DNA from: Lithospermum erythrorhizon
Lineage: Eukaryota > Streptophyta > Magnoliopsida > Boraginales > Boraginaceae
Reading direction: 5' to 3'
Length of the DNA: 64,000 nt
NCBI GenBank assembly: GCA_019722365.1
Contig: JADFUC010000804.1
Location: forward strand, 85,185-149,184
Shown: positions 1 through 64,000 of the stretch, one piece after another
How positions within the stretch are numbered: position 1 is the stretch's first letter
Layout: each line of letters starts with the position of its first letter
Notes under the pieces: model-generated
What the model was told of the DNA's origin: nothing
Databases searched by the model: none
The model's input: only the letters and a program-made list of their open reading frames with translations
Program-made: the position numbers and the translations under genes

Positions 1-1590
1 TGGCTCGAGTCAAAAGCGATACTCGAGCGTAATCTATAAAGATAAATTACATGCCATTCTCGGAATATCCGTGCTTCACATTGCGTATTTGCATTGATTT
101 ATACTCTTGCGGTACCAACTCCACTCATCTTCTTTAACTTTTGCCCTTTAGGCCAGTCTACGCTGATCACCGTACGACTCTGTCGTCCTCAGGCCGTCCA
201 CCTCGGCACTAAGATCCGCTCTCCCGGTACATGCTCCCAGAGCTAAAGTGAGCACATGCCATCTGAGAAGGACACGCATTCATGAAAATGTCACACTTTG
301 ACATTCAGGCTCACGTTACTCTAGTACTGACAATTTCTTGCCTTGTGCCCACTCTGTCCACAATGGTAACATTGAATATACACATCTGCCGGAACACCAG
401 AAATACCACCGTGAAAACCACTCATTCTAGGGGTGCGAGATCTTTGAAAAGCTCTTGAAAATACAGATTCGGACCCAGTAGGTGTGCTGGATACGCCATG
501 GGCGTGCTGCTAAAATTCCTCCCAAAACCCATGCATGTGCCCCTCCCGGCTCCGATTCACATCGAGGATCTCCCTCTCTTTCCACTCTGAGTGCACTGTA
601 ATCTCTCTCCACATGTGCTACATTCCTCAAGCTGGTAAAAGCTGACATAAGCAAAAAACAAAAACCAGTCTCTCACGAATCTATAACCCGGCCCTTAGTG
701 AAGCTTGCGATCCTCTGTAGCTTAGTGGGGTACACTTCGGGAATCAAACGGCACGTCGCTAAACCTCTCTTCATACCCATCAACTGTCCTCTCTCCATGT
801 TGCATCTGGATCAACTCTCTCCGTAGCGTACATGAGTCTCAAGCAGAAATTTTGTTTAAAGAGTTCCACGAATCGAACCCAAATTGTCGGCATCTCTCCC
901 TAGCAGCAAATCTTTGTGGACATGGTTCCACCAACTCCTAGCTCATCCCGACAACTGGTACACCACATATTTCATTTTTAACTCATCCTCCAAACCCATC
1001 GGTTCAAACTTATTCTCTAATGCTTCCAGGAATTCAATCGCAACCTCTGGTGTCGCGGCTACTTGAAATTAATTAGTCCACTTAACTGAAAGCATCTAGC
1101 AATTTAAGTACGAATCTCCGCCTCTCGGAGTGCCACTGCTGGGTCAGGTACTGGGGCCTGCGCCACTCCCACTGCCTCTCCAAAATCCTCATACTCTTGC
1201 TCTGCGAAATTCACGTCCTCTGGGAAACCCGGTTGAGTACGCTTGGGGAAACCATCCACCATGTCTTCTTCTCTAGCTCCACGAGCTCTGCCTCTAGCAC
1301 CCCTTCCTCTAGGTCTACCCGGGCTCTTCGGCGTCACCCCTACCAGCAGCTTGTCTCAGCCACTACCTAGAAGCACCTCTACCTAGCGGATAGCGATTCA
1401 CGTCTGCGCCTTTCGATTCTCGGTGGCATCCTCGAGGCGGTCTAGGAAAGAAGATAAAAAATAATTTAGACTCATGAAAAGACTCAAGCCACAAAATTTA
1501 ACAAAACCTTAGGCATTAGGCACACACGCCCGCAGGCCAGGTTAAAGCGGAACCTGCGCTCACGATGCCATAATTGCCAACGACCGCGTC
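1..1590 (-). mobile_element. Ty3/gypsy internal region, gag remnant (copy A)
   Basis: Read on the minus strand this is the 5' internal part of a gypsy element whose 5' LTR lies to the right. Around 1104-1376 the minus strand encodes a short basic, Arg/Gly-rich leader (RPRGRGARGRARG), typical of the start of Tekay/Del-type Gag. Around 840-1070 it encodes a capsid-like stretch in shifted frames, with signs such as LSG-ARSWW. The frame is broken several times, so no Gag can be made. A PBS-like stretch near 1560-1578 resembles the initiator-Met tRNA complement in degraded form. The same gag text recurs at about 27600-28480, so both copies belong to one family. The element continues beyond the left edge of the window. 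Confidence 0.7.
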
Positions 1591-2454
1591 GGAGTCGACA
1601 CCACCGAGTTAGAGTCGTTGCTCCGGCATATGTCTCCCCGAGTCACCATAGATGGTTGACACAAAAATAACTTTGTTTGAAAATCAATAGCGATAGTTTG
1701 ATAAAAAGTGAAATAGTTCGAAAGTTCAAAATGTCTCATCTGAGTTTAACCATCATTGGCATCACCTAATCAAATCAAAGTGCAAATTTCATAACGTTAC
1801 CAAGTCCAAAATACTCCATAAAACAGTTTATAAATTTTCAACACAAAATATGAGTCTGAGTACACCAAAAATAATTGAGTAGAAAAGAAGAAAAAGAAAG
1901 TATTTATCGAGGATCCTATCCTGTCTGTCATCTAAGCAGATAGCGGTCACTCACAGAACTCAAGTAGCTTCTCAAATGGCACCCTCAATGCGGAGGTTGG
2001 AAGGGGTATTCGGCGACTTAGTGGAAGCGAATCACCCGGGTGGTAACTTATCCACATCAAAGCGAGGTACACAACAAAGCGATATATGGGCGTAGCAATA
2101 GAGTATATGTATCTACAATAAAAGAATATACCAAAAACTATCCATAGCATCAAAATAATGTAATCATCATCCAACATATATACGTTTTAGAGGACTCAAC
2201 ATGTTAACCACATGTTATATCCGGAGATAGCATGTCACATAGTGCTTGAGCAAAACATCATAAATTCTCAAACACAACGGTTTATACCACAATAACAATA
2301 TAAGCAAACTCAAACAAGACGAGGACATTATCAACATTTGAGGCAGGTGACATCCTCGATGTCAACCTGATACTGAAGCCAATGCACACAATGTAATACC
2401 CGACCGCAAAAATATGTGTGTGTGGTGTGTGATATGTTTTGATAAGATTTGATT

Positions 2455-2584
2455 GGTACTACTCATACCACCAAGATGCATCTTGCCCCGGAGGTATTCG
2501 TCCTATAAATTCCCAATGTTAAGGCGTGCTTGACTTTGAGGCCAATTTTTAGGATGGGTGACCCTTTGAGAAGTTTCTCGGTGG
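2455..2584 (+). repeat. 5S rRNA-like segment, Cassandra LTR 1
   Basis: Resembles plant 5S rRNA across its length: CATACCACCA near the start, an AATGTTAAGGCGTGCTTGAC block matching the A-box/intermediate element region, and AGGATGGGTGACC matching the C box. Several substitutions and a changed middle make it unlikely to be a working 5S gene. Confidence 0.75.
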
Positions 2585-2945
2585 CGGCGTGAGTGGCGAC
2601 AAAGCGTCTTTGGAAAGGCCGTGGTGAAGTTTGTGAGGCCCGATCCACATCAAATCTAATAACGCCGCAGAACCGGTAGGCGGGCGGGCGTTACAAATGT
2701 GTCGAGCAAGCCGTCCGGAGCTGTGGGATCTAAGTGCTATCTGGCGCGCCAAAGTCACGGAACACCTCTTGAGGCACATTAGAGACCACCTCTAGAATCT
2801 CACCTGGATATAGTGCAGTCTGGATGTGTTGTGGCTGCGGGGCGTTGAGTATTTAAGTGGGGGAGTTGTAATATCAGGACACTTAAAAATAATGATATTG
2901 TGTGTGTGTGTGTGTGGTGTGTGATATGTTTGATAAGATTTGATT

Positions 2946-3072
2946 GGTACTACTCATACCACCAGATGCATCTTCTTTTACCGGAAGCTCATCCTATAAG
3001 AACTCCAATGTTAAGTATTGTGACTTTGAGCTAATTCTAGGATGGGTGACCCGGCTGGGGAGTTTCGGTGAA
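2946..3072 (+). repeat. 5S rRNA-like segment, Cassandra LTR 2
   Basis: Same layout as the copy at 2455. The C-box block AGGATGGGTGACCC is intact, while the A-box region reads AATGTTAAGTATTGTGACTT and is more diverged. Confidence 0.75.
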
Positions 3073-3431
3073 GAGCACGTGAGTGAGGACAAAGCGTCTT
3101 TGGAAAGACCACGTGGTGGTTTGTGAGCCCGATCCATCAAATCTAATAGCAGCACCCGACCCGGTGGGGCCGGGCAGGCGTTACAAATGGTATCGAGCGG
3201 GCGATCCGGGCCTTGAGAACTAAGTCTTGCGGTAGCAAAGTCGCGCGGCACTCTTAGCGAGGCCGTAGGAGCCGCCTCTAAGTCTCACACGGATGAGTGC
3301 GATCTGGATGTGTTAATGTCTCACTTGAGGCGTTGAGTATTTAAGTGGGGGAGGTTGTAATCTTAGGCCCAGGTAAAAATATGTGTGTGTGTGTGTGTGT
3401 GGTGTGTGATATGTTTTGATAAAGATTTGAT

Positions 3432-3558
3432 TAGTCTTCTTCGTACACTTTGAAGATGGATCTTCTTTTTCGGAAGCTCGTATAAGAACTCCAATGTTAG
3501 CGTGCTTGACTGGGGTAATTCTAGGATGGATGACCCACATTTAGGAAGTTTCTCGGTG
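3432..3558 (+). repeat. 5S rRNA-like segment, Cassandra LTR 3 (degraded)
   Basis: The 5' third is heavily altered (CGTACACTTTGAAGATGG), but AACTCCAATGTTAGCGTGCT and AGGATGGATGACCC are still recognisable. It lies in the truncated LTR. Confidence 0.65.
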
Positions 3559-3615
3559 AAACACGTAGAGTGAGGGGACAAAATGGAAAGGCATTTGTAA
3601 TACCCGACCCAAAAA

Positions 3616-3646
<31 letters not shown>

Positions 3647-3668
3647 ATATGTTTGATATGATTTGATT

Positions 3669-3798
3669 GGTACTACTCATACCACCAAGATGCATCTTCT
3701 TTTCGGAAGCTCATCCTATAAGAACTCCAATGTTAAGCGTGATGGCGACTTCCAGAATGATCCCAGGATGGGTGGCCCGTTGGGAGGATTTACCGGTG
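3669..3798 (+). repeat. 5S rRNA-like segment, Cassandra LTR 4
   Basis: GGTACTACTCATACCACCA, then AACTCCAATGTTAAGCGTG and AGGATGGGTGGCCC. The middle is rearranged relative to LTR 2 and 5. Confidence 0.75.
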
Positions 3799-4155
3799 AG
3801 CCGTGAGTAAGGACAAAGCGTCTTTGAAGGCCGGTAAGTGGTTTGTGAGGCCGATCCATCAAATCTAATATAGCAGCGCCCGACCAGTGGGCGGGCGGCC
3901 GTCCCTGCAAATGGTATCGGAAACAAAGCCGTCCGGGCGTAAGGATCAGAACTATGCGTATGAGTGAAATAGGACACACCTCTTGAGGCCGTGGAGCCAC
4001 CTCTAGAATCACACGGATGGTACGTCTGGATGTGTTAATGGGCTCAACGAGGGCGTTGAGTATTTAAGTGGGGGAGGTTGTAATGCGGAGCCACGCAAAA
4101 TGTGTGTGTGTGTGTGTGTGTGGTGTGTTATATGTTTTGATAAGATTTGATTTAA

Positions 4156-4278
4156 GTGCTACTCATACCACCAGATGCATCTTCTTTTAGGAGCTCATCC
4201 TATAGAACTCGATGTTAAGCGTGCTTGACTGGGGGAGTAATTCTAGGATGGGGACCCCGGTAGGAAGTTTCTCGATGA
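4156..4278 (+). repeat. 5S rRNA-like segment, Cassandra LTR 5
   Basis: ACTCATACCACCAGATGCAT, then GATGTTAAGCGTGCTTGACT and TAGGATGGGGACCCC. The A-box/intermediate element region is the best kept of the five. Confidence 0.75.
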
Positions 4279-5940
4279 GCACGTGAGTGAGGAAAGACCC
4301 GGTGGTGGTTTGTGAGACCAGTCCATCAAATCTAATAACGCACCCGACCCGGTGGGCGGGCCGGGCGTTACCCTGCTTGTATCCGACATTTATATAATGC
4401 AGATTGCCGCTTTTCGGCGAGGGCTCGCTATATAACCTGACATAATATAAGTATCCCTTTTTCCCCTTGAGCTCACCGCCAGCTCACCCATAAAGATATC
4501 ATGTCCTTTTCGGCGGGCTCAATCATAACAATCTCGATATGGCACCCACCAATATACATAATACACCAATCTCATATAAACTCATTACCATAATATACAT
4601 AACACAACCATCCATCTGATTCAACATTTCGCTTCACAAGTGCGCTATCATATCGAGATTCAAAAGCAATTGCTTATAGTCACGTATCTATTTATCAAGT
4701 ACTTCACTCAAACGTAAATAATATTATCATACGAGTGATAAATCCCCACATTTGGCTAGTACCACTAGCGCAGAAATCAATCGATCCATGACGCCGGCGT
4801 TCCGAGTCTAAACAAAACACCGAAAGTACGATTACTACAAACTTCGTTATAAATTCTCTTTTTAACAACTTTTAGTACCCATTAGCCACTTTAGGTGAAA
4901 TATTACTAGTTAAGCTCAAACGATAAACTAAACGTAATGAGACAACCCCTTAACCATTTGACCCTACTACAACGCCATTGCTAACACACTTTAAACAATT
5001 TTTAACCAATCAAAATATCAACTCTTCAACCAACTAAACCCATTTTCTAACAACCTTTAACCTCACAGCCCGAACACTAACCAAATCTAATAAACTAATT
5101 TCAACATATATTCATCCGACAACTTATAGAGCTAATTCCACACCTCGAACAACTATAATAAAGGTCCAGAACATGCTTATACCATTAAAAGCGGTTTTGG
5201 AAAAAGTGGCCGAAGTCAACTTGAAGATCAACACAAACTACGCAATATTTTCAACCCAAAAAAATCACCCCATTATTTTCATCTCCTATACTATAATCTA
5301 AGTCTAGATAATAATCATATGCAATATTAAACCTCAAAAAGCAGTCAAACTAAATCCCAAAAGTCCGCGTCCCTAAAGCGTCTGAATTACTCATCCAAAT
5401 GCTAACTTTAAATCAAGAACAAATAAGTTAAGGCCTAAGAATCGGTGTAAGCAATAATGAAATACAAAAAATCCAACAAAAGTCAACCCATTGAAACTCA
5501 TAAAATATCCAAAATATTCGGCCTTTTTCATCTTGAATCGAAGAAGAGGATGATGAAACTCTCCAAGAAATTTGAGGGCCAAAGCTCGCGAGATGGAGGA
5601 GAAATCGAAGAAAGAAATTCAAGGGGGAGAGGGGAGGGGTTCGGCGGTTGGGGGGAAAGAAGGGAGATGGGATTTTCTTTTTTTTTTTTTTATCCTCTCT
5701 TAAGGGCTTGTTTGGTATGTGGGAAGGATGAGGGAAAAACGAGTTTATCTGAGATGAAAAGAAATCAACCGTTTTAGTTCAAGCAATACCTCTCGATTCA
5801 ACTTACCTCGACTATTAATTTCCAACATCAACATTTACAGTACATGAAATATAAAGTGGGTCCAATTTTACGTTAATTAAATTAATAACTTCACATTTTA
5901 ATTTATTCATTGACGAGTCGTTACCGGTTATTAAATTTCC

Positions 5941-8735: not shown

Positions 8736-11270
8736 TTAATGAAACCTTACAACTATGCAAGATATATCATCCTTGCTTTTCCTAGAGAGAGCTTCTTCTG
8801 TAAGATGTTTTGCTGCTGCCTGTGCATCCTTTATATTCTTTATCGAGTCGACTGCTTCTTGATTCGACATCACCTGAATGAGAATATAATATCAGAAGTT
8901 GGAGTATAACATCAGAATTGAAATAATAGAATAACATCTTCAGGAAATAGTAACTTCAGCTTCATATGATGGATTCATATTTGCATAGAACCCACCTTCC
9001 ACAGACCATCACTTGCCAAAATGATCAAATCTATACCATCATCTATACCCTCTATTGCAACATCAGGTTCTGAACTAAGATGTATCTTTAAGCTCTTATC
9101 ACCAAATGCTCGAGCCACAGCCAGCTGCCCATCGACTCGAGGAACATCACCTACAAAGGAACAACTAAATAATGAGATGGGGAACATAGCTCAATTGTAA
9201 GAAGTTGGTCCGAATTCCAAGGTTTCCAAATAATGAGGAGCGATTCAAGATTAGCTATTACACGACATAGCAAAGCAAGTGAAGAAAATTACTCAGTATT
9301 CAAAATATAGATACTTTCTTCACAAATAGCACACATCTGAATCTATAAATTTCTTTAAATTGGATGATTAAGACATTAAGAAAATGTGGAAGCCGTGAGA
9401 TAAGGATTGAAAAGCAGACAACTTAAGATTTATGGAATCTCATAAACTTGAGAAGGTCGCTCATTAAATCATTTATCAGAATACCTGGAAGATTTGAAAC
9501 AAAACCGCCCTTGCTTTCAATAATCTTCTTCTCCTTGCTCGGCTCGTGATCAACAGATAGCTGCTCAGCCTCACCTTTTTTGCTTATAACAGCACGAGAA
9601 TCTCCTAAATTTGCAACTAAAAGTTTCTGACCATTGATAAGAATTGCAGTGACTGCAGTGGACCCTCCATTCCCCAAGTGAAGAGATGGTTCAAGTATAT
9701 TATTATCAGTTGTGCGATAAGCCCTCTTGATTGCACTCTCAGTATCAGTCCAAAAGTCCGGCTGCTTCAGGTGAAATTATACAGAGTAAAAGGATGACAA
9801 ATGACTTCAGAAAACGTTCCAATAAAAAATGTTGTGCAACAAACAGTCATTTTAGCATATGAAATCTTGAAAAAAATTAAAGGGGCACGCTACCTCTTTC
9901 AAGATGTTGCTGAATAAGTGCTTTTGTAAATAACTGGCAACATCATGACCCAAATGTCCATCAAAGATTGCAAATAGACCCAACTCATTGTCATCCTGTC
10001 GCTTGAACTCGGAAACCAAATAATCCTCCATTGCATGATTTGATTTTCCCTTCACTAGGTGAAATCCATGAGTTATGTGCTTGGACACCTTGCTTTTACC
10101 TTTTCCAGTATCAGGTGAGGATGCGGAAAAGCATGCCTTTTCCTGGGAAGTACTTCAAAAAAAATCAAAAACAGAAAGGCGACTAATGTGTTCAACAGGT
10201 CAAATCATAATCCCCTTAAGTGAAGTTAAACATATACACGGATTACTAACAAAAAGAGCATGCTCCTCAAATAACGAATAGGAGGAAATCAAACACTTGC
10301 ACCTTCTAAAGATTATAAGAATGCCAAAACTGAAACTAAACCTGTGAAAAAGAAACTAAATACAGAGGAATAAGGAGACGGGCAATACAAGTCTAACAAA
10401 AACGAAACCAATATCTGGAAGGGTTAGTTGATTAAGAGTAATTGACGATCAACTTGTACAGTTAATTGTACCATCTCAAATGATTAACTTCAAGCAAAAA
10501 AGATGACTATATCTATCTGGAACAAACCACGTAATCACATTCCATTAATCTTAAAATCTTAAAACTCTAAACATCGAATATCTTATTTATAAGATGTATG
10601 CTACGCCTAGTCTTGTATAGAGAAAATAGAACAATTCAATGATGAAAGTGTGTCAGCAGATATGCACCAATTCCTCTTCTGTCGTAGTACCTTCATTTGA
10701 TGTAAGTGGGCTCATTACATTCTTGACATGGACAACAGAATTATATATGACACTAACTTAAGAATATATAATCCTATAGTAATCTATGCGACACATCATT
10801 TTTCGCCTTGATTATCATGTTTTTCAAAAGTATGATAAGCTAAAGTAAAATGGTGACATTTCTTTGTTAAGTAAGGGTTCTATTGGATAGGTGCAAAAAA
10901 TATTGGTTAAAAAGCGATCAACTTGTTTGTGTAATAAAGTCAAATCTAGCTAATCAAAACGGATGCTCTCTTCCCTTTCCTATCTGTTTGTTCAAAGCTC
11001 TTGCACAATGATCAATCAAGCTCACCCCCAAAAAAAATAAAATATATAATATTCTTGCATCATCTGAGGCATTCTTAATCATGACTATAAAGCAAAACTA
11101 GCTCAAATTCATTTTTTAAGGATGCAATATTATTTAGATTTACAACAAAAGAAAAAATATAAGCACGTAAATACCAAAAGCAAACAAGAAAAGGCAAAAA
11201 AGGTGCAATTAAGTAGTAGAAAGATTGAAGAAGTTACCTTCATTTTATGCAAGATTTCTCTTCCTGTCAT
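8736..11270 (-). CDS. Protein phosphatase 2C, small plant clade (PIA1/At1g34750-like)
   Basis: Mg2+/Mn2+-dependent Ser/Thr phosphatase, likely in stress or defence signalling by family. Five exons on the minus strand: 11270-11238, 10142-9894, 9761-9485, 9150-8996 and 8873-8736, all with GT-AG borders and consistent phase, giving 283 residues, the usual length for this clade. The start MTGREILHKMK is the conserved tiny first exon; intron 1 is about 1.1 kb. PP2C motifs in order: MEDY (residue ~45), FAIFDGHLGHD with metal-binding Asp/Gly (~61), GGSTAV (~120), VANLGDSRAV (~135), DGQLAVARAFGD (~195), ASDGLWKV (~228) and KSKDDISCIVVRF with the C-terminal metal Asp (~268). No signal peptide or membrane segment. 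All key residues are present, so the gene looks functional. Which paralogue it is cannot be settled by eye. Confidence 0.93.
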
Positions 11271-15449: not shown

Positions 15450-15943
15450 TATAAAGACAGAATAAATATGATTACTAAAATATATTATTAATTATTATTA
15501 TTATTAATTATGATAGTAATTATTATCATTAATTATTATAATATAATAATAATAATATTAAGTAATTATTATTATTATAATTATTAATATAATTTTTATT
15601 ATAATTTTTATAATTATTATTATTAGTATTTTACATTATTATTTTTATTATTATTTTGTTTATTATTATTATTATTATTATATTTTATTCTTTGTTATTA
15701 TTATTATTATTTCATTTATTTTTATTATCATTTTTATTTTAATAATATTTAAGCAATATTATTTTATTTTTATTTTTATTTGATTATTACTATTTTAGTT
15801 TTACTTATTCTCTTCATTTCTATTATTATTATTTTTATTATTATAATAAATTATTATTATTATTCTTATTATTATTATTATTATATTATTTTTATTTTTT
15901 ATTTTTATTATTCTTATTATTAATATATTACTATTATTATTAT

Positions 15944-16041
<98 letters not shown>

Positions 16042-47458: not shown

Positions 47459-49155
47459 ATGTCTCTAATTGAATCAAATTTTACAGATCCATCTTCACCT
47501 TTTGCAGCAAAACTTGCTGAAACAACTCCAAAATTGAACACAACCAAACAGGTAAAAAATTGTTACAAAACAATGATAAAACCTCTTCTTTTAGCATGCT
47601 GCAAAGTCTACATATCAGAAAGCAGAAACAAGGCAGCCTTAGCATCAATAGAGAAAGCAGCCAAACTGTTCCCAGAAGCACCAATTATCAACAAATTTGA
47701 AGATGATTCTTACAACAGAATTGGTTACACACTTGTGTCCAAAATGGTACCAGAGGAGCCATCTCCACTTAAAAATGCAGTGTTTGAAATGGTGAAAGCT
47801 GCTTTTGATACCATTAATCTTGAATTGCATTGTGGGACACATCCTAGGCTTGGTGTTATAGACCATATTTGTTTCCATCCACTTGCTGGGGCTTGTTTGG
47901 AAGATGTTGCAGGCTGTGCCAAATCTTTAGCTGCTCATGTTGGCTCTACTCTTCAAGGTTTGTTTATCACATTCGATATTTAAATATTGAATTTTTATTT
48001 TAAAATTGTTTGAGTGGATTCTGTATTTTGGGTTACTATAATTCGTTGTTACATCTACCTTAACATGTTTCAATGCTTTTAAGAGAGCCTCGTCTGAGTG
48101 GGCTAAGGACGCAGCCTTAACCCTTGTGATAATAAGGACAGTAGGTTGAATTCCAAATTGACCTAAGAGTAAAGTGCTAGCACCATCTTTAATTCCTTGT
48201 TAGAAAACCATTTTTACTTGTGTTTGTGCGAGTGTTCTTAATTTGGATTACGAAAATCTTATCCATTCATTACTCCTTGCTGTGAGAAAATTCAACATTT
48301 GGATAATAAAAATGGATATTTTTTTTTCTGCAATAATATCTAAATTACCTAATGGAGGAATTAAGACCAGCCTTGCATTAATGTTTACTGCAATTCAGCA
48401 GGTAATGTCCTATTTGAAGGGAATAAAACTGTTTATTAATCCTAGTATGTTGTTATGAGAAGCTTGGTCATAGTTTCGTAAATTGACGTATGTTCTCCTT
48501 TTACATATGAGATCAGGATTTAGCAAGTTCTTTAATTGAAACTCTACTTACATATAGTGAAGTGACAACTCTATAATAATTATACCACAAACTTCTTTCC
48601 AATTATATGTACTTATCAAGAATGCTAATGATATAAAAATAGCCTGCAGTTCCTACCTTTCTGTACGGAGAAGCACATCAGGAGAGAATGTCTCTCGATT
48701 CCATAAGAAGAGAACTTGGTTACTTCAAGCCTAATTCAGATGGGAACCGGTGGGTAGGTGGACCAAATTCAGAGGCTCTACAACTGAAACCAAACGAGGG
48801 CCCTGGACAAGCGTTTCATCAGAAAGGTGTTATAGTGATTGGAGCAACAAGATGGGTTGATAACTACAATATTCCTGTCTTTGCAAATGATGTATCAGCT
48901 GTTCGCAAAATTGCAAAGAGGGTCAGTGGAAGGGGAGGTGGCCTCCCCACTGTGCAATCTATGGCACTTGCTCATGGTGAGGGAATATTTGAGGTTGCTT
49001 GCAACTTGCTGGATCCAAGCAAAGTTGGAGGTGACCTTGTACAACTAGAAGTTGAGCGGCTAGCTGCAGAACAAGGTTTCACTGTAGGGCAAGGATATTA
49101 TACTGATCTTTCACAGGAGAATGTTATTGAAGCTTACTTGAAGTCACTCAAATGA
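47459..49155 (+). CDS. Formiminotransferase-domain protein (plant FTCD-like)
   Basis: Plant relative of the formiminotransferase half of animal FTCD, a folate-dependent formimino-transfer enzyme. The plant substrate is not established by sequence alone. Two exons, 47459-47957 and 48650-49155, joined in phase (CAA G|TT CCT) with GT-AG borders, give 334 residues, close to other plant members. The first ATG follows an in-frame TAA at 47435. Seen: LLLACCKVYISESRN (~residue 41), IINKFEDDSYNR (~77), HCGTHPRLGVIDHICFHPL (~122, the family's HPR(L/M)G active region), PTFLYGEAHQER across the splice (~168), IRRELGYF (~185), NEGPGQAFHQKGVIVIGA (~214), GRGGGLPTVQSMAL (~257) and a C-terminal TDLSQENVIEAYLKSLK. 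No transit peptide is obvious. The gene appears intact; the cyclodeaminase half is absent, as usual in plants. Confidence 0.92.
48083..48155 (+). repeat. Possible tRNA-derived SINE head in the intron
   Basis: The stretch GTCTGAGTGGGCTAAGG (A-box-like) followed about 45 bp later by AGGTTGAATTCC (near the B-box consensus) has the spacing of a Pol III tRNA-type promoter. It does not fold as a tRNA by eye and no tail or target duplication was identified, so this is tentative. Confidence 0.3.
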
Positions 49156-59254: not shown

Positions 59255-60407
59255 TGTGATAACCCGTTCCATTAATATTATGAAATAGTATACTAGTTGC
59301 TCGGTGGAGTATTTAGGAGAAATCGAGAAATTTTGAGTTGAATCGTTGGAGATATAGCCCAGTCGATCGGGTTGATAGTGCGATTTGGTATTTAAGATTT
59401 TAAAGTTGTAATGTCAGTGGTATAATATTATTTGGGGGATTAGAAGTTAAATTTATATTAGAGTTGTGTTGTTAAATCGAGACGAGAAATTGAGCCGAAA
59501 ACCGAGCAAGTCTTGAGATATTTTTGGTGCGGACTTCTGAAGAGACTTTTTAATCATCGCCTTATCACCTTCAAGATTATCCAAGCACAAACTCATCCTC
59601 TTCTCCCTCCTCTTGGCCAGAATTTTCTCCACCATTTTCCGCGATTTTGTTCTTGATTTTCTTCCAAATTTGGCGAGCTTGGCCCTAAAATTTTACGGAG
59701 ATTCCCCGAGACATTCTCGTTTTTGAGGTAGAAAGTTCAAATATTTTGGAGTATTTCTTGAGTTTTTGAAGAGTTGACTTTATAGTCATTTGATTTGACT
59801 TTTAGATCTTGAAATTATAATGGTATAGAAATGTTATCTGAGTATCGGTTGGGGGATTTAGCGATGATTTTGAGTAGTTATTAGGGTTAGAAAGTGGTGT
59901 AAAGTGTTATGTTGACTTTTATTGACTTTTCTTAAATTGACATTAAATGGTAATATGAGGTTAAGGACTTTGTATAGTTGTTTTTGGGTATAGAATTATT
60001 GGTTTGGATATGGATAGGTAGAATTTTGGATTGAGAAAGTTTGGGAAAGTTAGAGTATAGCTTTTAAGTGATTGAATTGGAGGTTGTATTTAATGGATTA
60101 ATTAGTTGTCCGATTGATTCTTGGGTTGTTTAGAATGTGTTTAGGAGCTTTATTTTGATAATGTGTGGGGTTATGTTGTTATTGTATCCGTCGTTTGTTG
60201 AGGCTACGGTATCTACGGGTTGTTAATGATCTTAGCTTTTCGGGCGGCCTGAGTGAATGGAACCAATTTAATATCGAGCACAGGTTCGGGGTCTTTATGG
60301 TGTCTGTGTGGTTATGTGCTTGGGTTGATAGTTGTTAGAGAGTTGTCCTTATTGAGTTTTCTTGTGATGCGATTTCTTCTTTGTACGTTATTTAAGTAGT
60401 ATTGGGG

Positions 60408-61480
60408 ATGCCGCCCACGTAGGTACGTTCGGTTGGGTCTTTGCGGAGGTGCGGCAAGGGAGTGCGGCCGAGAGGAGGCTGCGAGAGGTGCTAGGGTGGT
60501 AGAGGTGCTAGAGTTCTTTGAGGCCATGGATAGTAATGTAGGCGTTGATGAGCTTTGTGTCGGGGCCACGGGGATGCAGGATAAATGTTGGTGGAGATCG
60601 AGGCAGTAGTTCTAGCTGGCAGGCGGGAGGTGGAATTCTACGAGTAAGCTATTTGGCCAAGCACTACGAGCGGGACCCACAGTTTCTTGGGGAGTGATAT
60701 TATACTATTCGAGGCGTTAGAGTTCATTGAGACTTGGGAGAGTATATTTGAGCTATGGGAGTTGCGGGGAGGCGGGACGGTCGCGGCGTCTGGTGCGGTG
60801 GGCTCGAGGCGGGTGGGAGGCTGAATCTTTGATTGCGGCTGGGCGGACACCGGTGTTGTGGGATCAGTTCGTGGAATTATTTCGAGGGAGCTTTTGTCTT
60901 CAGGTGCATATGTCAGCTCTAGAGAGAGAATTGATCCAGCTCAAGCAAGGGGGCAAGAGTATAAATGACTACGAGAAAAGATTCAGTGATCTCTGCCGTC
61001 TACTTCCGGAGGTGAATCCTACTGAGGGGAAGAGGATCGAGAGGTTCAGGGACGGAATGATATGGGAGATTCGCGCGGGTTATCGCTCAAAAATTATACA
61101 ACTTTCCATGAGCTGGTAATGATGCCTTCACGGTGAGATGGATTTGGTGAGTGTCAGTAGGTGGGGAGAAAAGAGAAGATATGATGCTTCCAAGATGGTG
61201 GTCGGTCGAGTTACGGGTTTCGAGGGGCGTCCGTCGCGGCGTGGCGTTACGGCCAGTCGGTTTAGTGCTCACGTGCCAATTCTCGGTCGGTACTCTTTGT
61301 TTCTATGCGAGTCTTTTAATCGGTGCAGGGAACTTGGAGTATCGAAGGAGGCGAGTGACTATGGGTGTTTCCGTTGTGCTTAGGGTCATAGAGGCTGCGG
61401 AATGCCGAGAACGGGGTGGTGGTTTGTTATCGGTGTCGCCCGGGGAAGGGGCACATTGCGGTGTCCCCGAGGCTGAGTGT
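60408..61480 (+). pseudogene. gypsy gag, frameshifted
   Basis: The core is in one frame at about 60840-61030 (VLWDQFVELFRGSF, ALERELIQLKQGGKSINDYE, RFSDLCRLLP), the retrotransposon Gag signature. At about 61360-61470 are two CCHC-knuckle remnants in shifted frames (CFRC, VVCYRC, GKGHIAV). Multiple stops precede and follow, so no Gag can be made. Confidence 0.75.
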
Positions 61481-61639
61481 TAGTGGGAGTGCTAGCACAT
61501 TTACTCGATACGGCCCCGGCGGGAGGCTATCCACACGAGGCCGTGGAGGTCGATTAGGTGGTAAAAGGCTTTGGGCGTGGAGTTGTAGAGTAGTCGGGGG
61601 TACTTGAGTTGGGACTAGTCGGTGGTCTTGGAACTAGCG

Positions 61640-64000
61640 TGGCGGATATTCTGGAGTTACCTGACGGGAAGCTTCGAGGATTCCCCAGGGCAGTCCTGGG
61701 TAGCAAATCTATGTGGGTTGGAAGCTAAAGTCTTGTTTGATTCGAGGAGCTACTCATTCCTTTATATCTAAAATTCTCGGCGTATTCTAAAACTCGAAAT
61801 TCTTGCTATTCACTTCTAATTCTAACTCGGTGGGGAATGCGGTAAGATTGATAAGGTACTTAGAAATTGTCCCGTAAGTATTGGAAATCAATGTACGGAG
61901 ATAGATTTATTACCTTTGAGATAGACGTTTTGATCTTATTAAGGGAATGGTTGGTTGGGGAAAGCGTCATGCGGTGATAGATTGTCATCTTAAGAAGGTG
62001 AAATATCTAGTCTGGTAAGATCTAAGATCTTCTTTCTAGGTGATAGAAAAATCCTTTCCTCTTTATAAAATTTACGCCTTAGTTGCCCATAAGATGTTGA
62101 GAAGTGGATGTGTTGGTTATCTTGCCCATGTTGTTGACACAAGTAAAGAGAAGGTTGATTTGAAAGAGGTGCATGTTGTGAGAGAGTATGTTGATGTGTT
62201 TCCTGAGGAATTGCCGGGACTTCCTCCTGTGCGGGAGGTGGAGTTTTCTATAGAATTGATTCCTGGTACTACTCCGATTTCTATGGCACCTTATAGAATG
62301 GCTCCTGCGGAGTTGAAGGAGTTGAAAGCACTTAATTGCGAGAGGTGTTGGATAAAGGATTCATTCGACAGTAATTCGCGCAGGAGCTCCGGTGTTATTT
62401 GTCGAAAGAAGGATGGATCTTTGAGGTTGTGTATCGATTATAGGCAATTTGAACAAAGTAACCGTAGAATCGATATCCGTTGCCTTACAAGTTGATGATC
62501 TGTTTGATCAATTGAAGGATGCCGGGTATTTTCTAAGATGACTTGAGGAGTCGGGGCTACCGTGATTGAGGATTAAGGAGGATGATGTATCGAAAGTCGA
62601 CTTTAGAACAAGATATGGGCACTCACAGTTTGGTGATGCCATTTGGGTTGTAGAATGCTTACTGCCGCATTTATGGATCTTATGAATCAGATTGTTCCGC
62701 ATAGATAAATTTGTGGTGGTGTTCATTGTGACATTTTGATATATTCGGTAGTGAGGGAGAGCAAAGAGCAGCTTGAGGATTGTGCTAGAGACTTTGAGGA
62801 AAAATGAATTGTATCTTTAAATTTTCCAAGTGTGAATTTTGGTTGAGAAAAGTGCGGTTGGGCCATGTGATTTCGGGGAGAGAGGTATAAGTGTTGATCC
62901 TCAAAGGTTGGAAATTTGTGATGAATTGGGAGCGACCAGCTAGTGTTCTTGAAATACGGAGGTTTTACGGGTCTAGCGGGATACTACTCGGAGATTTATA
63001 CAAGACTTCTCAATTATTGCCCACGCCCCGTGACCGGGTTGACTAGAAAAGGAGTTCGTTTGTTTGGAATGAGGATTGTGAAGCAGTGCTTGATGAGTTG
63101 AAAGAGAAATTTGACTACCGCGGTATTCGGCTCTTCCGTCGGAGACGAGGATGGGCGTGTATGGTAGTGCGTCGCGTCGGGGTTGGGATGTGTGTTAATG
63201 CAACGTGGTAAGGTGGTAGCGTATGCATCGCGGCAGTGAGAAATCATGAGAAAAAACTATCAACACACGATTTAGACTATTTGCTATTGTGTTCGCACTT
63301 AAGATTTGGAGGCATTATTTGTATGGGAGTGACTTGCAAAATTTTTCTTGATAAAGTTTAGAAATACCTCAGCGAAGATTTGAATCGAGGCGAAGGTGGA
63401 TGGAGTTTATCAGCGATTATGATGTTTCTATTGAGTATCATCCCGGGAAAGCGAATGTAGTGGCTGATGCCTTGAGTCGGAAGGGGAAGATTAAGGAGCC
63501 ATTAAATGAAATGAAGCAACTTGGTGTTAATTTCGGAGTGGGAGTCGATGGTGGTTTGTTGGCACAAATAAGGGTTCGACCGGTTCTTGTTGATCGAATA
63601 CTGGAGGGACAGCAAAAAGATGAGAAATTACAAAAAATAATAGGGGAAGTGAAGAGCGGAAGCAGATCAGACTTTGTGGTGAGAGAGGATGGAGCTCTTA
63701 CAATGCATGGTAGATTATTCGTTCCTTATTCTCAGGAGTTGAAAAAGGAGATTTTGGATGAGGCTCATAATGCTCCATACAGTATGCATCCTGGTGGTAC
63801 AAAGATGTATAGAGACTTAAAAGCAGTGTATTGAGTAGCCCGACATAGAGGGAAATTGCTGAATTTGTATCAAAATGTAGAGCATCGGCCGAGGTAGAGA
63901 TAGAACACCGACATCCGCGGGGCTATTGCGGCCCCTTCTATTCGAGTGGACTTGGGAGCATATTACGATGGACTTTGTTTTGGAAGCAATACGTAACTGG
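61640..64000 (+). pseudogene. gypsy pol (protease, RT, RNase H, integrase start), frameshifted
   Basis: A protease active-site stretch at about 61735-61770 is split by a two-base insertion. RT begins with VVREYVDVFPEELPGLPP (about 62183) and PYRMAPAELKELK (about 62290), then CRKKDGSLRLCIDYRQ (about 62400). The catalytic aspartate motif near 62711-62747 is broken by a one-base loss. RNase H text includes MQRGKVVAYASRQ (about 63197) and the 3' part is open at 63400-63834: YHPGKANVVADALSRKGK, then HNAPYSMHPGGTKMYRDLK, the start of the integrase HHCC zinc region. Integrase text continues in another frame to 64000. DVFPEELPGLPP plus this order is typical of Tekay/Del chromoviruses. Confidence 0.85.

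What the first reader, a model, noticed from the sequence alone, without database searches (positions are those of the whole stretch)
2392..4371. Tandem Cassandra array: five 5S rRNA-bearing LTRs sharing three internal regions
LTR-int-LTR-int-LTR/LTR-int-LTR order is visible from repeated TGTAATACCCGACC starts, GTTACA ends, met-PBS and GGGGGAGG PPTs. Cassandra is normally two LTRs; a five-LTR chain is uncommon and points to unequal or ectopic LTR recombination, or template switching. Five Pol III-type internal promoters in a row could make it transcriptionally unusual.
Basis: partly seen in the sequence, partly recalled or inferred. Interest (0 to 1): 0.8.

Follow-up and report, generated by a model that had tools for sequence, protein, structure and literature searches.

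The report
Ordinary tandem Cassandra retrotransposon array
Five copies of a small plant retrotransposon's end repeat, each carrying a degraded 5S ribosomal RNA gene promoter, sit in a row at one insertion site; such rows are already well documented in plants and this one looks old and ordinary.

Summary
Window 2392-4371 holds five LTRs and three internal regions of a Cassandra-type TRIM: LTR1-I1-LTR2-I2-LTR3(cut)/LTR4-I3-LTR5. All five LTRs align to the genome's own 5S rRNA gene far above shuffled controls. Motifs are weaker than stated: the canonical start is in 2 of 5 LTRs, no PBS is within two mismatches, and no LTR keeps both A and C boxes exact. Copies of the flanking repeat show an empty site, so the array is one insertion footprint, though no target duplication is recognisable. 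In this genome 7 of 61 examined loci have three or more LTRs, all on one strand (slightly biased sample); one other has five (C933), and C933 and C1604 carry 5-bp target duplications. Tandem Cassandra and TRIM arrays are published, up to 13 LTRs. Most likely an L5I4 array lost LTR3's end and one internal region by deletion. Dating is unsafe: LTRs of one locus are hardly more alike than LTRs of different loci, and base errors in repeats are suspected. Verdict: real, known kind, low interest.

The parts
2392..2695 (+). LTR1; starts TGTAATACCCGACC, ends GGCGTTACA; 5S-like part 2455-2585; C box 2551-2563 exact, A box broken by one inserted base
2696..2866 (+). internal region 1, degenerate PBS, PPT GTGGGGGAGT at 2857 (1 mismatch)
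2867..3185 (+). LTR2; ends GGCGTTACA; 5S-like part 2946-3063; C box 3039-3051 exact, A box 3 mismatches
3186..3355 (+). internal region 2, degenerate PBS (TGGTATCGAGCG at 3188), exact PPT at 3345
3356..3595 (+). LTR3, 3' part missing; 5S-like part 3471-3555; C box 1 mismatch, A box lacks one base
3590..3602 (+). junction of cut LTR3 and LTR4 with no internal region between; possible TTGT microhomology
   Evidence: sequence; the microhomology is inference
3596..3909 (+). LTR4; starts TGTAATACCCGACC, degenerate 3' end; 5S-like part 3669-3785; A box 2 mismatches, C box 1
3910..4078 (+). internal region 3, degenerate PBS (TGGTATCGGAAA at 3912), exact PPT at 4068
4079..4371 (+). LTR5; ends GGCGTTAC; 5S-like part 4156-4282; A box 1 mismatch, C box 2
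1892..2391 (.). 5' flank: part of a dispersed repeat (41 matches besides itself listed, 40 of 491 candidates scored); paralogues carry the empty site
4372..5300 (.). 3' flank: continuation of the same dispersed repeat

Best explanation
It is an old tandem array of a Cassandra TRIM (a non-coding LTR retrotransposon whose LTRs carry a 5S rRNA-like Pol III promoter region), sitting at one insertion site inside a copy of another dispersed repeat. Shown: order, 5S homology, single footprint, recurrence of such arrays in this genome. Inferred: it was once a regular five-LTR, four-internal (L5I4) array, arisen from a two-LTR element either by LTR-LTR recombination in place or by integration of a concatenated cDNA, and later lost about 247 bp (the end of LTR3 and the following internal region) by a deletion ending at the start of LTR4. 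It now makes no product that the sequence can vouch for.
For: Order and spacing 475/489/240/483. Copies of the flanking repeat run through the site without Cassandra: L058 and L062 read CAATGCACACAA then TAACTGTATCCGACATTTATATAATG; L056 (one base fewer) and L057 (one base changed) nearly so; the window has the whole array between CAATGCACACAA and TGTATCCGACATTTATATAATG. C933 (L044) also has five LTRs, flanked by TGATG on both sides, with its fourth internal region reduced to about 25 bp: a similar loss. C1604 (L043) is a clean L3I2 array with TATGG on both sides, exact PBS and 287-bp LTRs 91-96% alike. Published tandem TRIMs have the same layout.
Against: The window's array has no recognisable target-site duplication: 3' of LTR5 stands CCTGCT where CACAATAAC would be expected. 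The supposed deletion ends exactly at an LTR start, which a random deletion would do rarely unless the TTGT microhomology guided it; a repeat search of the junction found nothing. Identity gives no clear sign that the units share a recent origin: array LTR pairs average 89.3%, against 87.0% for array versus other loci.
Confidence: 0.7

Rival explanations
1. Two events: a three-LTR array (LTR1-LTR3), and a separate two-LTR element (LTR4-I3-LTR5) that inserted into LTR3, after which the rest of LTR3 was lost by recombination with LTR5.
For: LTR4 starts precisely with the canonical terminus TGTAATACCCGACC shared with LTR1. C950 (L035, L051) has two two-LTR elements back to back with about 7 bp between.
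Against: No remainder of LTR3 and no duplicated target follows LTR5; host flank follows directly.
Confidence: 0.2
2. Integration of a ready-made concatenated cDNA (template switching, or end-joining of two cDNAs with LTR3 as an unfinished end), without later recombination in place. This overlaps the best explanation as to how the array arose.
For: Single footprint for the whole array. 5-bp duplications directly around complete arrays at C1604 and C933. Kalendar et al. report multi-unit Cassandra transcripts (passages).
Against: The same pattern of duplications is left by in-place expansion of a two-LTR element; the data do not separate them.
Confidence: 0.25
3. Assembly artefact: repeats falsely chained by the assembler.
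For: Base-level quality in repeats is doubtful: listed 5S genes of contig C1334 range from 115 to 38 bits, and four lower scorers fetched from it are 86-93% identical to the clean copy with 2-9 indel events each. CpG cells of LTR alignments depart most, mostly not to TG/CA.
Against: The five LTRs and three internals all differ; the flanks join as in other copies of the host repeat; separate arrays elsewhere carry 5-bp duplications.
Confidence: 0.06

Closest known systems
Tandem Cassandra arrays (Kalendar et al. 2020, PMC7215508; Yin et al. 2014 in pear, seen only as cited in PMC4528315)
   Same: Alternating LTRs and internal regions, 5S-like region in the LTR, head-to-tail; truncated terminal units are mentioned in the paper's Discussion
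   Different: Published long arrays are described as nearly identical units; here the units differ and one internal region is missing
Tandemly arrayed TRIMs (TA-TRIMs), Gao et al. 2016, PMC4717578; Wukong in maize, PMC4528315 (passages of both)
   Same: L3I2 most frequent in maize, L5I4 known, TSD around the array, SMART arrays validated by PCR; Wukong elements with three to seven LTRs
   Different: Those examples belong to other TRIM families (SMART, Wukong) without 5S sequence
Array at G000:C933 in the same genome (L044)
   Same: Five LTRs, one internal region almost lost
   Different: It has TGATG on both sides, and its internal remnant of about 25 bp includes the PPT

Membership tests
Cassandra TRIM | 5S rRNA-like region within the LTR | tested here: met
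   All 5 LTRs align to the genome's own 5S gene, scores 72-99 against at most 47 in 300 shuffles each; the Rfam 5S model itself does not ring there
Cassandra TRIM | A box RGTTAAGYRHGY and C box RRRATRGGTRACY (motifs from PMC7215508) | tested here: inconclusive
   C box exact in 2 of 5; A box exact in 0 of 5, best 1 mismatch in LTR5; no LTR has both exact. A-box matches with 2 mismatches are at chance level (45 of 179 control bins)
Cassandra TRIM | PBS TGGTATCAGAGC (met-tRNA) after the 5' LTR | tested here: inconclusive
   Not within 2 mismatches in this array, but exact after LTRs of related copies L002, L005 and L043
Cassandra TRIM | Short LTRs and internal region without coding capacity | tested here: met
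   LTRs 293-319 bp (LTR3 240), internals 169-171 bp; no ATG/GTG/TTG-started ORF of 150 aa or more there; stop-to-stop frames up to 115-116 aa overlap it
Cassandra TRIM | 5-bp target-site duplication (mark of the insertion, lost in old copies) | tested here: inconclusive
   None found at this array; the 3' side is altered against the empty site. Present at L043 and L044 (the LTR end at L044 is degenerate), and by eye at L005 and L009
Tandemly arrayed TRIM | Three or more LTRs alternating with internal regions in one orientation | tested here: met
   L5I3, all on +; alternation is broken once, at LTR3/LTR4
Active Pol III transcription unit | 5S-type transcript from the array | not testable with these tools
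   No RNA data; boxes are degraded

The most novel reading that the evidence does not exclude
Cassandra arrays in this genome were integrated as ready-made concatemers of several units (multi-unit RNA copied and inserted whole), so that array size is set before insertion rather than by later unequal crossing-over; target duplications directly bracketing three- and five-LTR arrays (C1604, C933) would be its trace.
Probability: 0.2. Interest if true: 0.4.

Novelty: new member of a known kind. Interest (0 to 1): 0.12.

Why it matters
Little for this locus alone. It adds a genome in which tandem Cassandra arrays recur, three of them examined here down to the insertion site (the window, C1604, C933). 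It also warns that LTR dating and promoter calls in such assemblies can be misled by base-level noise in repeats.

Tried and rejected
Rfam search for 5S: no hit at gathering threshold in the window, nor at E up to 10 over 2000-4800. The best listed row, SCARNA7 at E 0.004 (24.2 bits, cut-off 65), overlaps the TG repeat and was set aside as a low-complexity match; the genome's own 5S gene was used instead.

Exact PPT-gap-PPT patterns to count arrays genome-wide gave 0 hits in both spacing ranges, although arrays exist; the pattern is too strict, so a census of fetched loci was used. Census limits: the sample is of loci that matched a window LTR or an A-box-centred pattern, with stretches of 2.6-4.5 kb. 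Of 61 loci, 5 (C2043, C1604, C933, C1253, C1464) were fetched only because two hits lay close together, and 2 of the 7 arrays come from these; without them it is 5 of 56, the window included. Before the count I dropped 12 loci that repeat a place already held, and the 12 flank loci L054-L065. L037, with several LTR pieces on + and some on -, was counted as both strands.

The idea that LTR1 and LTR4, sharing the canonical start, mark two original 5' LTRs was not kept: the same start occurs on 3' LTRs elsewhere. Dating by LTR divergence was dropped: 38 same-locus LTR pairs average 86.8%, 1853 pairs between other loci 86.0%, 310 pairs of array against other loci 87.0%, the 10 array pairs 89.3%. 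An empty-site comparison with a distant copy inside the window (12.3-14.4 kb) was too diverged to read; paralogues from the genome settled it. A repeat search over the LTR3/LTR4 junction found nothing.

Full report
What is there. Window 2392-4371 reads LTR1-I1-LTR2-I2-LTR3(cut)/LTR4-I3-LTR5, all on the + strand. LTR starts are 475, 489, 240 and 483 bp apart, so three units keep the regular period and one is about 247 bp short. The short unit is LTR3, which lacks its 3' end and runs directly into LTR4 without an internal region. The supporting motifs are looser than stated: canonical start in LTR1 and LTR4 only, GGCGTTACA end in LTR1 and LTR2 only, no PBS within two mismatches, PPT exact in two of three.

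Is it Cassandra. Rfam's 5S model does not ring in the array, but it finds real 5S genes in the same genome (best 115 bits; 45 matches listed, 47 of 9781 first-look candidates scored). Against that 5S gene (L087, identical to L086) all five LTRs align with scores 72-99, while 300 block shuffles of each LTR reach at most 47. The C box is exact in LTR1 and LTR2, one mismatch off in LTR3 and LTR4, two off in LTR5. The A box is exact in none, best in LTR5 with one mismatch, and carries an insertion in LTR1 and lacks a base in LTR3. As background, of 179 bins of LTR size elsewhere in the window, 3 have an A-box match with one mismatch and 45 with two, and none has a C-box match with fewer than two. 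So the family assignment holds, but no copy here looks like an intact Pol III promoter.

One insertion footprint. The 500 bp upstream of the array belong to a dispersed repeat: 42 matches were listed including the window itself, with 40 of 491 candidates scored. Of the 11 other loci fetched, 11 of 11 also match downstream window sequence. Of the ten shown at base level, L058 and L062 read CAATGCACACAA then TAACTGTATCCGACATTTATATAATG; L056 lacks one base and L057 has one changed; the other six are more diverged at the point itself, and none of the ten shows Cassandra sequence there. The window has ...CAATGCACACAA, the array, then CCTGCTTGTATCCGACATTTATATAATG. Nothing of the host lies between LTR3 and LTR4. 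A target-site duplication is not recognisable.

Other arrays in this genome. A 28-base A-box-centred pattern with up to three mismatches hits 155 times, its reversed control 0 times. Of 61 distinct loci examined, 28 are L2I1 on one strand, 16 single LTRs, 5 L1I1, 1 L2I0, 1 L2I1 on both strands, and 7 have three or more LTRs with all pieces on one strand: four L3I2, one L4I2, two L5I3 including the window. Three more have three or more LTRs on both strands. Five of the 61 were chosen because two hits lay close together, and they contributed C1604 and C933. C1604 is clean: three 287-bp LTRs, 91-96% alike, exact PBS, TATGG on both sides. C933 has five LTRs with TGATG on both sides (its last LTR ends in degenerate GCATA), and its fourth internal region is reduced to about 25 bp. 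It is a parallel for the loss of one internal region in the window.

History. The simplest account is a regular L5I4 array at one site, followed by one deletion. At the junction, LTR3 ...AAGGCATTTGT could have joined through TTGT, which occurs both inside the LTR (GGTTTGTGAGG) and at its start (GGTTGTAAT); this is inference from the sequence. An insertion of a two-LTR element into LTR3, or integration of joined cDNAs, is not excluded. Identities do not help: LTR pairs at one locus (38 pairs, mean 86.8%) are hardly more alike than pairs between other loci (1853 pairs, 86.0%); the ten array pairs average 89.3%, array against other loci 87.0% (310 pairs, 67 LTR pieces of at least 180 bp from 33 loci). 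On a stricter multiple alignment, array pairs are 74-82% and six two-LTR elements 81-87%.

Base-level noise. In 17 aligned LTRs, differences from the column majority are strongest at CpG cells (23.3% of 412), 15.9% at other G/C, 12.9% at A/T near G/C, and weakest in AT-only context (7.5% of 107). Of 205 majority-CG cells, 74 depart, and only 26 of these are TG or CA, the expected products of deamination. Listed 5S genes on contig C1334 range from 115 bits down to 38, and four of the lower scorers fetched are 86-93% identical to the clean copy with 2-9 indel events. Some may be real pseudogenes, and C1604 shows that some Cassandra copies read clean, but base errors in methylated repeats are a fair suspicion, so box damage and age should be read with care. 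No reads were available to test this.

Comparison with print. Kalendar et al. 2020 (PMC7215508; abstract, passages and the Discussion read) describe Cassandra tandem arrays in many plants, about three LTRs in silico and 13 LTRs by PCR, with both recombination and template switching proposed. Passages of Gao et al. 2016 (PMC4717578) report tandem TRIMs in 35 of 43 genomes, L3I2 most frequent in maize (63 of 93), and L5I4. Passages of the Wukong paper (PMC4528315) report elements of three to seven LTRs in maize and cite Yin et al. 2014 for 252 multi-LTR Cassandra elements in pear. Yin 2014 and Kalendar 2008 are not held. Maiwald et al. 2024 (PMC10853983; abstract and passages) also cites tandem Cassandras. 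The finding is therefore a new member of a known kind.

Noticed in passing
window 60000-64000 (+): Looks like a Ty3/gypsy-type retroelement (by eye from RT-like residues; Pfam gave no hit for the 151-aa ORF at 62040-62495) whose frame looks broken in places, possibly base errors.
   Followed up: partly
window 324-509 (-): CCHC zinc knuckle (Pfam PF00098), gag-like, 1.9 kb upstream of the array.
   Followed up: partly
window 47459-49155 (+): Formiminotransferase-domain gene: PF07837 on the ORF at 47459-47983; the ORF at 48688-49155 gave no Pfam hit and is joined to it only by eye.
   Followed up: partly
window 9426-9776 (-): Protein phosphatase 2C exon (PF00481).
   Followed up: no
window 15483-16039: About 550 bp of AT-rich TAT/ATA microsatellite, the last 95 bp perfect.
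   Followed up: no
G000:C1334 (L087-L091): Listed 5S genes of one contig differ widely in score (115 to 38 bits) and the weaker ones fetched carry indels; assembly noise or pseudogenes.
   Followed up: partly
L026, L037, L075, L077: Cassandra LTRs in opposite orientations side by side.
   Followed up: no
L043 (G000:C1604): Clean Cassandra variant with a different LTR start (TGTAAAACCCCAGCC) and no TG repeat.
   Followed up: partly
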